From positions 20,645 to 53,079 of the forward strand of contig JAKLKA010000079.1 of NCBI GenBank assembly GCA_023150915.1: a DNA stretch of 32,435 bases, given 5' to 3'. This document shows positions 6,743-12,431 of the stretch, piece by piece (the stretch's first letter is position 1; the number at the start of each line of letters is the position of its first letter). This DNA comes from Polyangiaceae bacterium (GTDB lineage Bacteria; Myxococcota_A; Polyangia; Polyangiales; Polyangiaceae). Below the pieces are notes generated by a model that searched no databases, was not told the origin of the DNA, and saw only the letters and a list, made by a program, of their open reading frames with translations. The position numbers and the translations under genes are program-made.

Positions 6743-7282
6743 ATGACCCTCCCCCGCTGGTGCCTGATCCTGATCCTTGCTCTGGGGGCCTGCGGAGGAA
6801 GCCGCGCGGGGCCCGCCGCGGACCCAACCCTTGCGAATCTGCCGCCTTACACCGCGGCCGACGCGGCCCTGCTCGATGATCGGCTGAGCCCCGAGGTGTT
6901 CGGCACCGAGGTCGACTCGTCCGATCCGGTCGCGCGCCGCGCGACCCTCGGCGACGGCATCGTCCGGGCCCGGATCATCACCGTGACCCGCGACAGCGCC
7001 GGTCAGGCCGAGCGCTTCGTGGTGACCTTGGCGCCGGTGCCCCCGGCGCTCAAGGGCCGGGACATCACCGAGGCGCTCAGCCTGTCGATCCCCACCACCA
7101 ACCCGAGCTTCGGGTTCGTGAAGAGCTTCGAGACCGAGCTAGTGGGCAGAAGCGTGATCGTGATCTACAAACGCTTTGCCGAAAACGGCGAGGCGACTCT
7201 GCGCTGGCACATCGAAGCCGATGGCCCGCGGGTGCTTCAGGCCATCGACCGCGCGCGCATCATGGGAGAGCTTCGGCAGTGA
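6743..7282 (+). CDS. Lipoprotein of unknown function
   Basis: 179 residues. MTLPRWCLILILALGACGGS is a lipoprotein signal peptide with lipobox LGAC and Cys17 as the lipidated residue. The mature part is a small alpha/beta domain (DDRLSPEVFGTEVDSSDPVA, VRARIITVTRDSAGQAERFV, VGRSVIVIYKRFAENGEAT). It contains no known catalytic motif. The ribosome-binding site before ATG 6743 is weak. Its end overlaps the GTG start of the methionine aminopeptidase gene by 4 bp, so the two are probably co-transcribed. Confidence 0.8.
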   Translation: MTLPRWCLILILALGACGGSRAGPAADPTLANLPPYTAADAALLDDRLSPEVFGTEVDSSDPVARRATLGDGIVRARIITVTRDSAGQAERFVVTLAPVPPALKGRDITEALSLSIPTTNPSFGFVKSFETELVGRSVIVIYKRFAENGEATLRWHIEADGPRVLQAIDRARIMGELRQ

Positions 7283-8118
7283 AGATCATGGGATTTCGCA
7301 GCACGTCCGTCGAGATCAAGGGCCCGAAAGAGATCGAGCGGATGCGCGAGGTGTGCCGCATGGCCGCCGAGACGCTCACGCTGGTCGGCGAGATGTTGCG
7401 CCCCGGAATCACCACCGAAGACATCAACCGCTTCGTGCACGAAGACACGGTGCGGCGCGGCGCGCGGCCGGCGCCGCTCAAGTACAAGGGCTTCCCCAAG
7501 AGCGTGTGCACCAGCATCAACGAGGTGGTGTGTCACGGCATCCCGGGGTCGCAGGTGCTGGCCGAGGGCGACATCATCAACGTCGACGTGACCCACATCT
7601 ACAAGGGCTTTCACGGCGACACCTCGGCGACGTTCTACGTGGGCACGCCCAGCCCGGACGCGATCCAGGTGACGGAGGTCGCGCGCCGCTCGCTCGAGCT
7701 GGGCGTGGCGCAGGTCAAACCCGGAGCACGCCTGGGCGACATCGGCGCCGCCATCCAGGAGTTCGCCGAGGCCCAGCGGTGCTCGGTGGTGCGCGACTTC
7801 GTCGGGCACGGCATCGGGCGTCAGTTCCACGAAGAGCCCAAGGTCAGCCACTATGGCACCTGGGGCCGCGGGATCCGGCTCCGGCCGGGGATGACCTTCA
7901 CCATCGAGCCGATGATCAACCTCGGCGGGTGGGAAGTGCGGGTACTGGACGACGACTGGACCGCGGTCACCGCCGACGGCTCGCTCTCGGCCCAGTTCGA
8001 GCACACCGTGCTGGTCACCGAAACCGGCGTCGAGGTGCTCACCGCGCGGGCCGGCACCTTGAAGGGCAGCGAGCTCTACCCGGAGTACTTCGCCGGGCCC
8101 CGCGGCGCCGAGCGCTGA
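7279..8118 (+). CDS. map: Type I methionine aminopeptidase
   Basis: 279 residues. It removes the initiator Met from nascent proteins using two divalent metals. The five metal ligands of the pita-bread fold are all present: Asp103 (INVDVT), Asp114 (HGDTSAT), His177 (VGHGIGRQFHEEP), Glu210 (FTIEPM) and Glu241 (AQFEHT). The substrate-binding His86 (EVVCHGIP) is also present. The GTG at 7279 is preferred over ATG 7288 because GGGAGAG lies about 10 nt upstream of it; the sequence then reads MKIMGFRSTSVEIKGPKEI. The N-terminus lacks the zinc-binding SH3-like extension. The length is slightly above the E. coli enzyme (264). Confidence 0.96.
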   Translation: MKIMGFRSTSVEIKGPKEIERMREVCRMAAETLTLVGEMLRPGITTEDINRFVHEDTVRRGARPAPLKYKGFPKSVCTSINEVVCHGIPGSQVLAEGDIINVDVTHIYKGFHGDTSATFYVGTPSPDAIQVTEVARRSLELGVAQVKPGARLGDIGAAIQEFAEAQRCSVVRDFVGHGIGRQFHEEPKVSHYGTWGRGIRLRPGMTFTIEPMINLGGWEVRVLDDDWTAVTADGSLSAQFEHTVLVTETGVEVLTARAGTLKGSELYPEYFAGPRGAER

Positions 8119-8246: not shown

Positions 8247-9860
8247 ATGCCGGCCCGCACCAAGAAAAAACCAAACAAATCCGCTAAGAAGGCTCGCCCG
8301 GCGCCGAAGAAGAAGGCCCGCGCGGCGGCGAAAGCCCGTCGTGCGCCGGCCCGTCCGGCCAAGCGACCGAAGCCCAAAGCCAAGCCCAAGGCCACGCCCA
8401 AGGCGCGGCCGAAGGCCCGACCGAAGGCCAAGGCGAAGCCGATCCAACGCGCGAAGACCAAGGCGGCGAGCCCCGCTGCGCTCAAGCGGCAGCGCGAGCA
8501 AGAGCGCGCCCGGGCCCAGAAAGAGCGCGAGCGCGCCCAGAAAGAGCGCGAGCGCGAGCGCGAGCGGGCTCAGAAAGAGCGCGAGCGCGCCCAGAAAGAG
8601 CGCGACAAGGCCCGCGCCCGCGAGGCCAAGGCCCGCGAGGCCGAGCGCGAAGCCGAGCGAAAAGCCAAAGAGGCCGAGCGCGAGCGCCTGAAGGAAGCGG
8701 CCCGCAAGGCGAAAGAGGCCGAACGCCTCGCCCGCGAGGCCGAGCGCGAGCGCGTGCGCGAAGAAGCACGCAAGGCGAAGGAAGCCGAGCGCGCCGCCCG
8801 GGACGCCGAGCGCGAGGCGTATCGCAAGGCGAAAGAGGCCGAGCGCGAGCGGCTGCGCGCAGAGCGGGAAGCAGCCCGCCGCGCCCTCGAGGGGCGTGTG
8901 GCCCGGGCCAGCAAGCGTGCGCTCCGCGCGGGCGCCAAGGCATCGACCACCCGCGTCTACCGCCCGGACGCGATCCCCAACCAGGCCGGTACGACCCGTC
9001 GCACCGACTTGGCTCCGCTGCCCCGCCCGGTGGTGCAGCGCGCGGCGCCTCCGCCGCCCCCGCCGCCCCCGCCGCCCCCGTCGCCCCCGCCGCCGCCGGC
9101 CTCCATCGAAGAGCGCTACGCGCTGGTGGTGAAGCGGCTCAGTGAGTGCGACAGCGCCTTCCAGAACGAGTACGCCGAGAGCCTGGAGATGTCGTGGGTC
9201 TATCACGACAGCGCGCTCGAGGGCGTGGTCTACACCTACCAAGAGCTGCGCACCGCCATCGACCCCGGTGTCAACGTGGTAGCCGACTCGAGCATGCAGC
9301 CGGTGGTGGACGAGATCCGCCGCCACCGCCAGACGCTGGCGCTGGTGCGTGATCTGGGCGAGAAGAAGCGCGCGCCCATCACCGTCGACACGGTGAAGAA
9401 GATTTACCTGACGCTGCACCCCGAAGAGGGTGATCTCAAGAACCTGCGGTACCGCAAGGACATCCCGCAGCACCGCCTGTACTTCCACGAGTACGCGCCG
9501 CCCGACAAGATCGCCTACAAGGTGCGGCAGGTGATCGACTGGCTCAACGGGCCCGAGCCGAAGAAGATCAAGCACGCGATCCGCATCGCGGCCCGCGTTC
9601 ACTACGATCTGGTGCGCGTGTTCCCGTTCTCGAACGACAGCGGCAAGGTCGCGCGCATGCTGATGAACATCATCTTGCTGCGCGCGGGGCACCCGCCGGC
9701 GATCATCCACTCGACCGAGCGCCAGCGCTATTACGAGGCGCTGAAGAGCAGCCTGCCGACCTTGATCCAGATGATCACCGAGTCGATCACCAACGGCCTG
9801 GCCAGCATCGAGAAGCGCCTGGACGAACGCGACTCGCGCCTGCGAAGTTTCACGGCTTGA
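8247..9860 (+). CDS. Degenerate Fic-fold protein with H1-like tail and long charged helix
   Basis: 537 residues. Residues 1-78 are Lys/Ala/Pro/Arg-rich (PKPKAKPKATPKARPK), like histone-H1-type bacterial tails, and could bind DNA or RNA. Residues 80-215 are an uninterrupted Glu/Arg/Ala-rich stretch (QKERERAQKERERERER), expected to be a rigid single alpha-helix or coiled coil. Residues 268-284 are nearly all Pro. Residues 285-537 are Fic-like: an inhibitory-helix-like HDSALEG at 320-326, then VHYDLVRVFPFSNDSGKVAR at 451-470. The canonical HxFxxGNGRxxR becomes FPFSNDSGKVAR: catalytic His is Phe459, the first Gly is Asp464, Asn is Ser465, and the first Arg is Lys467; Phe461, Gly466 and Arg470 stay. 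AMP transfer by the normal mechanism is therefore unlikely. It is monocistronic, with its own promoter. Confidence 0.8.
   Translation: MPARTKKKPNKSAKKARPAPKKKARAAAKARRAPARPAKRPKPKAKPKATPKARPKARPKAKAKPIQRAKTKAASPAALKRQREQERARAQKERERAQKERERERERAQKERERAQKERDKARAREAKAREAEREAERKAKEAERERLKEAARKAKEAERLAREAERERVREEARKAKEAERAARDAEREAYRKAKEAERERLRAEREAARRALEGRVARASKRALRAGAKASTTRVYRPDAIPNQAGTTRRTDLAPLPRPVVQRAAPPPPPPPPPPPSPPPPPASIEERYALVVKRLSECDSAFQNEYAESLEMSWVYHDSALEGVVYTYQELRTAIDPGVNVVADSSMQPVVDEIRRHRQTLALVRDLGEKKRAPITVDTVKKIYLTLHPEEGDLKNLRYRKDIPQHRLYFHEYAPPDKIAYKVRQVIDWLNGPEPKKIKHAIRIAARVHYDLVRVFPFSNDSGKVARMLMNIILLRAGHPPAIIHSTERQRYYEALKSSLPTLIQMITESITNGLASIEKRLDERDSRLRSFTA
8487..8891 (+). repeat. In-gene repeats coding the Glu/Arg-rich helix
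   Basis: Short imperfect repeats of an AGAAAGAGCGCGAGCG-like unit (clearest at 8517-8605) and later AAGGCGAAAGAGGCCGAGCG-like units code the charged helix of the Fic-fold protein. Units stay in phase, so expansion or contraction would only change helix length. Confidence 0.7.
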
Positions 9861-9904: not shown

Positions 9905-11293
9905 TCAGTCCACCGGCGCGATCGAGTCCCAGCCGGTGGCCTGCGAGAGCTTCGAGATGGCGATGTTGTACTCGTACACCGCGCTCATCTGCGAAAAGCG
10001 CTTCAGCGCGTACTCCTTCGCCGGCGACACGATGTCTTCGTCGTCGAAGGTGCCGACGTCGATCCCCTGCTGCACCTTGATCAGCCACTGCCGAGCGTAG
10101 CCCTGGGCCCGGGTGTAGGCGTCGACGCGCTTCGCCGCGTCCGTGGCTTCGGCAAAGGCCTGCTCGACCTCGGTGCCCACGCCGCCCAGCGCGAAGCGTT
10201 CGGTGGCGCGGATCTCTTCCAGCTGCGCGCGGGCCTGCGCCACGCGCGCGCTCTGCGGCAAGAAGTCCAGCTTCCACTTCAGCGCCAACGCCGCGCCGTA
10301 ATAGAAGCGGTTGGCGCTGTCGCTGACGTACGGGTTGACCTGATTGGTCACCTCGGGCGCGCGTGCGTACCGACCGCTGAGCGCCAGGCCGAAATCCGGG
10401 AAGTATCGTGATTGCTCGAGCCGCACCTGGGCCTGACGCGCCAGCACGCCCGCGCGGGCCATGTTGACCTCGGGCCGGAAGAGCCGCGCCGCCTCCAGAT
10501 AGCGGCCCAGGGGCGCCAGCGTGTGCGGCACGCGGGCCAGCGGCTGGTCCGGAATGTCGATCGCGCCCTTCACCCCGGTCAAGAAGCGCAGGCCCGAGAG
10601 CGCGATCCGCTCCTGCTTCTGGGCCTCGCTCTCGCGCGCTTCCAGCTCGGCGCGATACATCTTGAGCTTCAAGAGCTCGATGTCGTCGCCGTCCCCGCTG
10701 GCCACGCGGGCCTCGAGCCGCCCCATGTGCTTGTCGATCTGCTTGGCCGCCTCGCGCACCAGCGCCAGCGAGTCGCGGGCCAGCTGGGCGCCGTAGAACG
10801 CGCGCCGGACCGACAGCTTGACGTCGTTCTTCTCTTTCTTGACCTCGTGCTCGCCGACCTTGACTTGCGCCTCGGCGGCGTCCCACAGGTTGCTGATCTT
10901 GCCGAAGGTCCAGAGCGGCACCACGCCGTCGATGCCCATCTGCCAGGCCAGCGCCATGTTCGACGTCAGCGCCACGTCGGTGTTCGGGCTATAGACGCTG
11001 GTGCCGCGCACGGTGGGTGCCGGGCCGATGCCACCGGTCAGCGTCCAGTCGCTGTACGGCGCGGTGTGCGCCTGGCTGAGCTGGGCCTCTTTCTGGCGCT
11101 TGCGCGCCTTGGCCTCGGCGATCTTCGGATAGTTCTGCTCGGCCAGCTCCAGGCACCGCCGCAGCGAGTGCACTGGCGCCCGCGACGCGGCTTCGCTCAC
11201 GCGCGGGGGCGGGGCCGGGGCCGGGGCCGGCTCGGCGCGGGCCATGAAGGGCGCGAGCAGCGCGCCCAGCAGCACGGCGGTCACGCGGCGCAT
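9905..11293 (-). CDS. TolC-family outer-membrane channel protein
   Basis: 462 residues. A signal peptide (MRRVTAVLLGALLAPFMARA-EP) is followed by the two-fold repeated architecture of outer membrane efflux proteins. The first half has HSLRRCLELAEQNYPKIAEAKAR and long helices (VKKEKNDVKLSVRRAFYGAQLARDS); the second has YLEAARLFRPEVNMARAGVL and RLEQSRYFPDFGLALSGRYA, the typical Tyr-Phe-Pro-Asp turn. The family forms trimeric channels across the outer membrane for drug or protein export. No membrane-fusion protein or transporter gene is adjacent, so the partner is unknown. It is the last gene of the leftward operon; a single base separates it from the response-regulator gene. Confidence 0.88.
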   Translation of the reverse strand: MRRVTAVLLGALLAPFMARAEPAPAPAPPPRVSEAASRAPVHSLRRCLELAEQNYPKIAEAKARKRQKEAQLSQAHTAPYSDWTLTGGIGPAPTVRGTSVYSPNTDVALTSNMALAWQMGIDGVVPLWTFGKISNLWDAAEAQVKVGEHEVKKEKNDVKLSVRRAFYGAQLARDSLALVREAAKQIDKHMGRLEARVASGDGDDIELLKLKMYRAELEARESEAQKQERIALSGLRFLTGVKGAIDIPDQPLARVPHTLAPLGRYLEAARLFRPEVNMARAGVLARQAQVRLEQSRYFPDFGLALSGRYARAPEVTNQVNPYVSDSANRFYYGAALALKWKLDFLPQSARVAQARAQLEEIRATERFALGGVGTEVEQAFAEATDAAKRVDAYTRAQGYARQWLIKVQQGIDVGTFDDEDIVSPAKEYALKRFSQMSAVYEYNIAISKLSQATGWDSIAPVD

Positions 11294-11294
11294 G

Positions 11295-12431
11295 TCAGCG
11301 CTTCCCCCCCGGGCGATCCGACAGCCGCCGCCGGCTGGGCACGCTCGACGGCGAGCGGCTGGGCGGCGGCCGGCTCGAGAGCGTCGCCGCGCGGACCTGG
11401 CGCGGGGCGCGCTCGTCGGACGTGGGGCCCACCACCGGCGTGTAGAGGTAGCCCTGCTGCTGGAAGACGCAGATCCGGTTGCCGCCGTCCCGCTTGGCCT
11501 GGTTCAGCGCCGAGTCCGAGGCGCGCAAGAGCGCGTCTTTCGAGCGCACGTCCCGCGAGGGGTAGAGCGCGACGCCCACCGACAAGGTGACCCGCGTGGG
11601 CCCGCTGGGGTCGCCGAAGAACGGGCGCTCGGTCACTTCGCGCCAGATGCGCTCGGCGACCGTGACCGAGCCCGCGAAGTGCGTGCTGGGCAAGACCAGC
11701 AAGAACTCGTCGCCGCCGTAGCGCGCCACCACGTCCACCTCGCGCACGCTGCGGCGCACCACGTCGGCAACGCCGCGCACCACGTTGTCGCCCAGCGCGC
11801 GACCGCCAGCCTCGTTCAGCGCGGCCAGCTGGTCGATGTCGATGATCACCGAGGCGAGCGGGTCGTGATAGCGCTCGGCGCGCTTGAACTCTTCGGCCAG
11901 CCGGGTGTGCAGGTAGCGGTAGTTGTACAGGCCGGTGAGCTCGTCGTGCACGCTGAGCTGCTCGAGCTTGGTGCGCGCCTTGGCCACGTGGTCGTGCAGC
12001 TTCTTGATGCGCAGCATGGCCTCGACCCGCGCCAAGAGCTCGCGCTCGTCGAACGGCTTGGCGACATAGTCGTCGGCGCCGATCCTGAGCCCGTCGACCC
12101 GGCTCTGGGTGTCCGAGCGGACCGTGAGCAAGACCACCGGCAAGAAGGCGTCCCCCGAGATGCTCTTGATGATGCGGCACGCCTCGAGCCCCGACAGCCG
12201 CGGCATGAGCACGTCGAGCAGCACCAGATCCGCGCCACCCTTCCCCACCCGCTCGATCAGCGCCTGGCCGTCGTCGAAGCCCTCCACCACGTAGCCGCTG
12301 CTGCGCAGCAGCGTGGCCAGCTGCTCGCGCCCCAGTCGCTCGTCGTCGGCGATCAAGATGGTCGAGCCGAGCACGCTCTTGTGTCCCGTCGACGGCGGCG
12401 GCTCGCTGATCTTCGACTCCGACTCGGACAC
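11295..12431 (-). CDS. Response-regulator diguanylate cyclase (REC-GGDEF)
   Basis: 378 residues, GTG start at 12429-12431. The REC domain (about 22-142) has the acidic pocket LIADDE, phospho-acceptor Asp73 (LVLLDVLMP), Thr103 and Lys125 (AKPFDE). A short helical linker leads to a GGDEF domain (about 155-320) with VHDELTGLYN, metal-site IDID, the catalytic GGDEF at 239-243 and an intact RxxD inhibitory site (REVD, 230-233). The signature motifs predict active cyclic-di-GMP synthesis, feedback-inhibited by product. The C-terminus is a low-complexity Ser/Pro/Arg tail. The kinase partner is not in the window. Position between lptD-like and tolC-like genes points to control of envelope or secretion functions. 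Confidence 0.93.
   Translation of the reverse strand: MSESESKISEPPPSTGHKSVLGSTILIADDERLGREQLATLLRSSGYVVEGFDDGQALIERVGKGGADLVLLDVLMPRLSGLEACRIIKSISGDAFLPVVLLTVRSDTQSRVDGLRIGADDYVAKPFDERELLARVEAMLRIKKLHDHVAKARTKLEQLSVHDELTGLYNYRYLHTRLAEEFKRAERYHDPLASVIIDIDQLAALNEAGGRALGDNVVRGVADVVRRSVREVDVVARYGGDEFLLVLPSTHFAGSVTVAERIWREVTERPFFGDPSGPTRVTLSVGVALYPSRDVRSKDALLRASDSALNQAKRDGGNRICVFQQQGYLYTPVVGPTSDERAPRQVRAATLSSRPPPSRSPSSVPSRRRLSDRPGGKR

What the first reader, a model, noticed from the sequence alone, without database searches (positions are those of the whole stretch)
8247..9860. Fic-fold protein without the catalytic His, fused to H1-like tail and rigid helix
Seen: the HxFxxGNGRxxR motif becomes FPFSNDSGKVAR (459-470), losing His, the first Gly, Asn and the first Arg, while the fold-specific segments remain. 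The protein also has a Lys/Ala/Pro tail, a 135-residue Glu/Arg-rich helix and a Pro run. Known: some Fic proteins lacking His have other activities or none (for example AvrB-type). Inference: it may be a nucleic-acid-bound pseudoenzyme or a sensor.
Basis: partly seen in the sequence, partly recalled or inferred. Interest (0 to 1): 0.75.

Follow-up and report, generated by a model that had tools for sequence, protein, structure and literature searches.

The report
Conserved Fic family lacking catalytic histidine
A protein shaped like an AMP-transferring enzyme has lost its key histidine, yet relatives across this bacterial group share the loss and a rebuilt site, so the site is most likely still used, for binding or for a different chemistry.

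Summary
ORF 8247-9860 (+) encodes 537 aa with a Fic domain whose motif reads FPFSNDSGKVAR. It is not decay. A profile finds relatives in 146 of 377 Myxococcota genomes, 100 of 104 in the window's class (own genome included). In 130 aligned rows position 459 is F, Y or W, never His, and the motif Asn is always replaced. They form one clade apart from His-bearing Fics (96/95, motif columns removed). The domain is under purifying selection. AlphaFold models of a near and a distant member match human FICD (Z 25.7 and 29.5).

The site is remodelled rather than eroded: inhibitory Glu325 and its partner Arg470 are kept, the inhibitory Ser/Thr is Asp321, flap Tyr412 is nearly invariant, and neither model shows a flap hairpin. 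My best reading is a non-AMPylating FICD-like module that binds a phosphorylated ligand or partner. A different chemistry, as in AvrB, stays open. The long basic tail and charged helix occur in only part of the window's family; other members have short stubs. Function is inferred; nothing biochemical was tested.

The parts
8247..9860 (+). Whole gene, 537 aa: basic tail, charged helix, Pro run, His-less Fic domain
   Evidence: the start is supported by L004 and L005, whose reading frames contain the same MPARTKKKPNKSAKKA at their first Met
8247..8480 (+). Residues 1-78, Lys/Ala/Pro/Arg tail without acidic residues (H1-like composition)
   Evidence: relatives range from long tails (up to about 470 aa before the domain) to stubs of about 20-50 aa (crude starts)
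8481..8930 (+). Residues 79-228, Glu/Arg/Ala/Lys-rich segment with single-alpha-helix-like charge pairing
   Evidence: shuffle control
8958..9002 (+). Residues 238-252, linear motif YRPDAIPNQAGTTRR, shared by some relatives with a long tail
   Evidence: 9 loci by pattern, and L004, L005, L035 as printed
9048..9098 (+). Residues 268-284, proline run
9102..9857 (+). Residues 286-537, Fic domain of FICD-like fold
9207..9224 (+). Residues 321-326 DSALEG, altered inhibitory motif: (S/T)xxxE(G/N) with Asp for Ser/Thr, Glu and Gly kept
   Evidence: position 321 D 122, E 6, gap 2 of 130; E325 126 of 130; G326 130 of 130
9450..9503 (+). Residues 402-419 YRKDIPQHRLYFHEYAPP, lid where the flap hairpin would be
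   Evidence: R403 130 of 130, Y412 129 of 130, H409 and R410 116 of 130, H414 113 of 130; no strand there in either model
9621..9656 (+). Residues 459-470 FPFSNDSGKVAR, remodelled Fic motif
   Evidence: 459 is F 91, Y 34, W 5 of 130; 465 is S 114, P 8, T 7, A 1; G466 128 of 130; R470 129 of 130

Best explanation
It is a member of an old Myxococcota family of FICD-like Fic proteins that do not AMPylate. Shown by comparison: the catalytic His and the motif Asn are gone in every row examined; the metal acid is replaced in most rows; the inhibitory Glu and its Arg partner are kept; an aromatic residue always sits at the His position; the flap hairpin is absent from both models. Inferred: E325 and R470 stay engaged, ATP is not used for AMP transfer, and the pocket that should be lined by R403, R470, R492, Y495, N474, Y412, D321 and E325 binds a phosphate-bearing ligand or an already modified partner, so that the protein is a sensor or reader rather than a writer. 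Where the long basic tail is present it would tether this module to nucleic acid, with the charged helix and Pro run as a spacer. Ligand, partner and tethering are unproven.
For: No His and no motif Asn in 130 rows, and F 17, Y 14, W 5 at 459 in 36 rows under 60% identity. One clade with the motif columns removed (96/95; 98 by a quick method). dN/dS in the Fic domain 0.05 with the nearest relative and 0.14-0.26 with three others. Present in 100 of 104 genomes of the window's class, own included. The most conserved columns are G326, R403, R470, R492, Y495, then Y412, H452, P460, N474, L477; the inhibitory stretch 317-328 is matched in conservation by 3 of 241 windows of its length. FICD fold in two separate models, pLDDT 93.9 and 94.8. 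In FICD the Glu234-Arg374 salt bridge opposes AMPylation (passage of PMC12974487), and deAMPylation needs both Glu234 and His363 (passage of PMC8373988).
Against: The pocket-type residues are more strictly kept than a passive pseudoenzyme needs, which equally fits a new enzyme. No neighbour gene shared across lineages points to a ligand or partner. No model coordinates were available to me, so distances in the pocket were not measured and its lining is inferred by alignment. His loss need not abolish activity: PMC4454073 (passage) reports residual AMPylation by an IbpA His-to-Ala mutant. At least 13 of 130 rows keep Glu at the metal position. The motif and flap stretches are only moderately more conserved than the rest (29 of 241 and 41 of 235 windows as conserved).
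Confidence: 0.5

Rival explanations
1. It is an active enzyme with different, probably metal-independent, chemistry: the general base moved from the motif His to another residue (flap Tyr412 or His409/His414, or D321/E325), as AvrB is a glycosyltransferase without the standard motif.
For: New, nearly invariant polar residues: Y412 in 129 of 130 rows against A 7, S 4, T 3, V 3 and others in 20 ordinary Fics, and D321 in 122 of 130 against S/T in 18 of 20 (the flap alignment to ordinary Fics is uncertain). AvrB precedent: a rhamnosyltransferase that needs no divalent cation (passages of PMC10866546).
Against: His409, Arg410 and His414 are lost in part of the distant members (116, 116 and 113 of 130 kept). 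The hairpin that docks target peptides is not seen in the models. No substrate is known.
Confidence: 0.3
2. It is a scaffold or regulator that works only through protein contacts, for instance by pairing with ordinary Fic enzymes.
For: FICD works as a dimer or monomer (abstract start of PMC6826200); the fold is kept.
Against: In at least 7 of 59 class genomes the His-less protein is the only Fic match at E up to 1e-6 (G049, G118, G141, G169, G315, G348, G361; against places), so an ordinary Fic partner is not obligatory. Conservation peaks at residues expected in the pocket.
Confidence: 0.15
3. It is a decayed Fic gene.
For: Motif residues are lost.
Against: The same losses in 130 of 130 rows, purifying selection, and presence in 100 of 104 class genomes.
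Confidence: 0.02

Closest known systems
FICD/HYPE and class II Fic proteins with an N-terminal inhibitory helix
   Same: Fold over the whole domain (6i7g_B: Z 25.7, rmsd 2.7, 239 residues, 23% identity); inhibitory Glu and Gly; second motif Arg; Pro and second Gly of the motif; Tyr495.
   Different: No His, no Asn, metal acid mostly replaced, first Arg mostly Lys; Asp for Ser/Thr in the inhibitory motif; no flap hairpin in the models; Pfam finds no domain but Fic in the whole protein, so no TPR match.
AvrB (Fido protein without the Fic motif)
   Same: Lacks motif residues but keeps small Pro and Gly residues of the loop (passage of PMC2686095).
   Different: Much weaker structural match (2nud_A: Z 11.8, rmsd 3.6, 179 residues, 11% identity).
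Doc clade D2 with Gln for His (passages of PMC4454073)
   Same: A clade in which the motif His is replaced.
   Different: Doc subfamily, Gln, NKR retained; here F/Y/W with mostly SGK in a FICD-like domain.
Coxiella CbFic2 (passages of PMC10628234)
   Same: Class II Fic fold joined to a nucleic-acid-binding part.
   Different: CbFic2 has a motif His (H205 in the passages) and a helix-turn-helix; here a low-complexity basic tail and no His.

Membership tests
Fic/Doc family (PF02661) | Match to the family profile over the curated cut-off | tested here: met
   42.9 bits (whole protein) and 45 bits (domain) against 24; 48 of 48 members of alignment A1 match at E up to 0.01
Fic/Doc family (PF02661) | Fido fold | tested here: met
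   AlphaFold pLDDT 93.9, FICD Z 25.7; distant member pLDDT 94.8, Z 29.5
Catalytically competent Fic AMP transferase | HxFx(D/E)GN(G/K)R with His, metal acid and Asn | tested here: not met
   His in 0 of 130 rows, Asn in 0 of 130; position 463 is T 24, N 18, K 17, S 13, E 13 and others
Class II Fic (N-terminal inhibitory helix) | Glu and Gly/Asn of (S/T)xxxE(G/N) at an N-terminal helix | tested here: met
   E325 126 of 130, G326 130 of 130; in the model helix 303-324 ends just before them
Class II Fic (N-terminal inhibitory helix) | Ser/Thr of (S/T)xxxE(G/N) | tested here: not met
   D 122, E 6, gap 2 of 130
FICD deAMPylase | Glu and His both present (both needed in FICD, passage of PMC8373988) | tested here: not met
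   Glu kept, His absent; the activity itself was not testable here
AvrB family | AvrB-like structure | tested here: inconclusive
   Z 11.8 to 2nud, far below FICD
Doc clade D2 | Qx(F/Y)x(D/E)(G/V)NKR motif | tested here: not met
   No Gln at 459 in 130 rows
Histone-H1-like tail (label recalled) | Lys/Ala/Pro-rich basic low-complexity tail | tested here: met
   K 28%, A 29%, P 18%, no acidic residue in 78 aa
Histone-H1-like tail (label recalled) | Nucleic acid binding | not testable with these tools
   needs a binding assay

The most novel reading that the evidence does not exclude
A separate class of Fido enzyme, fixed across much of a bacterial phylum, that works without the motif His, and in most members without the metal acid, using a rebuilt site (D321, E325, R403, Y412, R470, R492, Y495) for a reaction not yet known for Fic proteins.
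Probability: 0.28. Interest if true: 0.82.

Novelty: new variant of a known kind. Interest (0 to 1): 0.6.

Why it matters
The motif His is treated as the defining residue of Fic enzymes. A family that appears to have lost it once and then kept a new site, in 100 of 104 genomes of one class and with a single match in 138 of the 146 genomes that have it, is unusual for Fic proteins, which are better known (recalled) from toxin-antitoxin pairs and effectors. It gives a natural test of what the Fic fold can do without AMP transfer, and a candidate housekeeping function in myxobacteria. A plain 'Fic family' annotation would mislead, since AMP transfer is what it most likely does not do.

Tried and rejected
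Decay was rejected and so was another fold. A partner gene was sought by clustering neighbours of 87 loci (8 more family loci were dropped because the crude gene caller missed the gene). The commonest neighbour, peptidase M24 (map-like), is in 21 loci and none of the distant ones; a response-regulator-type cluster is in 20, one of them distant; a RecN-like one is in 16; RsmH-like and FtsI-like ones are in 8 distant loci each. M24 rests for the window; RecN, HisF, RsmH and FtsI are my reading of printed N-termini, not a family search. A mobile origin found no support: the profile scan of viral contigs gave no relative; 36 plasmid records match, the 15 listed are 24-31% identical, and the 4 fetched carry HPF..GNGR. 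PHROGs gave two phage families without known function, best 65.7 bits. Long ORFs in distant members look like upstream read-through of stop-to-stop frames, not domain fusions. A promoter scan found nothing, and terminator-like sites were at chance level. NCBIfam matches to XopAC and others lie far below cut-off.

Literature: nine searches. No title or abstract start that I saw is about this family, but the lists (15 of 106; 12 of 765; 8 of 29; 8 of 1002) were capped, and only an open-access library is held. Six papers were read in passages only.

Limits: the one genome-contig scan used exact peptide patterns, so relatives outside Myxococcota were not sought with a profile except in viral contigs. 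The motif was read only in fetched members, not in all 146 genomes. The ordinary comparison loci were mostly the best PF02661 scorers. The two trees carry warnings about long branches and odd letter make-up, and the root is not inferred. No ordinary Fic was modelled as a control for the missing flap hairpin. Whether H1-like tails are common in this genome was not tested.

Full report
Observation. The ORF at 8247-9860 (+) encodes 537 aa and its C-terminal half matches Pfam Fic over the cut-off. Residues 459-470 are FPFSNDSGKVAR. Relative to HPFx(D/E)GNGRxxR the His, metal acid, first Gly, Asn and first Arg are changed; Pro, Phe, second Gly and second Arg remain. The first 78 residues are K/A/P/R-rich with no acidic residue; residues 79-228 show charge pairing beyond shuffles (2 of 2000 as high).

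Is it decay? No. A search with the Fic domain matched 56 of 59 genomes, own included; two of the 56 are poor evidence (G030 only a weak 25% hit, G023 a piece at a contig end), and weak second hits elsewhere look like ordinary Fics. A pattern scan of genome contigs gave 75 loci, whose record titles name Myxococcota or Deltaproteobacteria. A profile search of 377 Myxococcota genomes hit 146 at E up to 1e-15. From its listing I count 3 of 3 in the genus (own included), 29 of 32 others of the family, 35 of 36 others of the order and 33 of 33 others of the class, which makes 100 of 104 in the class, and 46 of 273 in other classes. The last figure includes at least one ordinary Fic (G087, locus L139).

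Motif state. In 130 aligned rows (near-copies included; the window's own domain is present as query and as L114) position 459 is F 91, Y 34, W 5. The Asn position is S 114, P 8, T 7, A 1. The metal position is mixed, with E in 13. G466 is kept in 128 and R470 in 129. In 36 rows under 60% identity position 459 is F 17, Y 14, W 5. For contrast, all 31 ordinary Fic/Doc loci examined carry the His (20, whose pattern demanded it, and the other 11 with a pattern that did not): 29 best PF02661 loci, the own-genome Fic, and L139. So do the 4 plasmid relatives fetched.

Descent. With the 12 motif columns removed, a tree of 76 rows put the 20 His-bearing rows on one side of a branch (SH-aLRT 98, quick method). 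A careful tree of 46 rows separated 37 His-less from 9 His-bearing rows at 96/95, and in 96% of 200 bootstrap trees. One origin of the loss is thus supported; the root is not inferred. Gene context changes between lineages while the gene stays. No relative was found in viral contigs.

Selection. Nei-Gojobori dN/dS against L004, L005, L006 and L035 is 0.05, 0.14, 0.26 and 0.22 for the Fic domain and 0.11, 0.16, 0.46 and 0.30 for the tail; synonymous distances run up to 1.06 and 1.30, so the later values are rough.

Structure. AlphaFold of the window domain with 48 rows: pLDDT 93.9, pTM 0.91; best PDB match FICD 6i7g_B, Z 25.7, rmsd 2.7 over 239 residues. A distant member, L141, with 37 rows: pLDDT 94.8, pTM 0.91; FICD 4u0u_A, Z 29.5, rmsd 2.1 over 243 residues. 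Neither model has a strand in the flap region (model block 121-130, mean pLDDT 81 and 87), whereas FICD engages its target through an intermolecular sheet with the flap (passage of PMC8373988). I modelled no ordinary Fic as a control for this point.

The rebuilt site. Nearly invariant residues are D321, E325, G326, R403, Y412, P460, G466, R470, N474, R492 and Y495. Twenty ordinary Fics mostly share E325 (18), G326 (15), R403 (17), G466 (20), R470 (20), R492 (14) and Y495 (17), but have Ser/Thr at 321 (18 of 20) and mixed residues at 412 (alignment across the flap is uncertain). The nearer members further fix H409, R410 and H414 (91 of 91); a distant branch has Pro-Gly and others there. So what nearly all members share is the inhibitory Glu-Arg pair plus a new Asp and a new Tyr; what is lost is the equipment for AMP transfer.

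How it most likely works. Shown: fold, losses, retained pair, conservation. From the papers: in FICD the Glu-Arg pair opposes AMPylation, and deAMPylation needs His as well as Glu. Inferred: AMP transfer and FICD-type deAMPylation are both unlikely, and the pocket serves binding of a phosphorylated ligand or partner. An alternative chemistry remains open at about 0.3, since AvrB acts without the motif and without divalent cations.

The tail. The window has 285 residues before the domain. Among order relatives the region ranges from more than 400 aa to stubs of about 20-50 aa, including short ones within the window's own family, and distant members have little or nothing (starts are crude). Some relatives with a long tail share the linear motif AIP(N/S)Q(S/T/A)GT (9 loci by pattern; L004, L005 and L035 as printed); the Sorangium tails printed do not show it. 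Nucleic-acid binding is a guess from composition; a DNA-bound Fic enzyme is known (CbFic2, passages).

Known or new. By profile and fold it belongs to the Fic family; it fails the definition of an active Fic AMP transferase and half meets the class II inhibitory motif. Fido proteins without the His have been described (Doc clade D2; AvrB), so the kind is known and this is a new variant. The nine searches listed under Tried and rejected showed no paper about it.

Noticed in passing
window 8958-9002: Linear motif YRPDAIPNQAGTTRR between the charged helix and the Pro run is shared by some relatives with a long tail, in several followed by (K/R)FANLR or (K/R)LVGVR.
   Followed up: partly
   Followed up: no
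L136, L137, L138, L141, L144, L146, L147, L152: A distant branch in which most rows have Glu at the metal position (for example FPFDERTG) and rows printed have Pro-Gly instead of His-Arg in the flap; its site may differ from the window's.
   Followed up: partly
window 9905-11293 (-) and 11295-12431 (-): Outer membrane efflux protein gene, convergent with the Fic gene, beside a response regulator with a GGDEF domain; relatives of the first are neighbours in 9 and of the second in 20 of 87 loci.
   Followed up: no
window 7279-8118 (+): Peptidase M24 (methionine aminopeptidase-like) gene directly upstream; relatives are neighbours in 21 of 87 loci, none distant.
   Followed up: no
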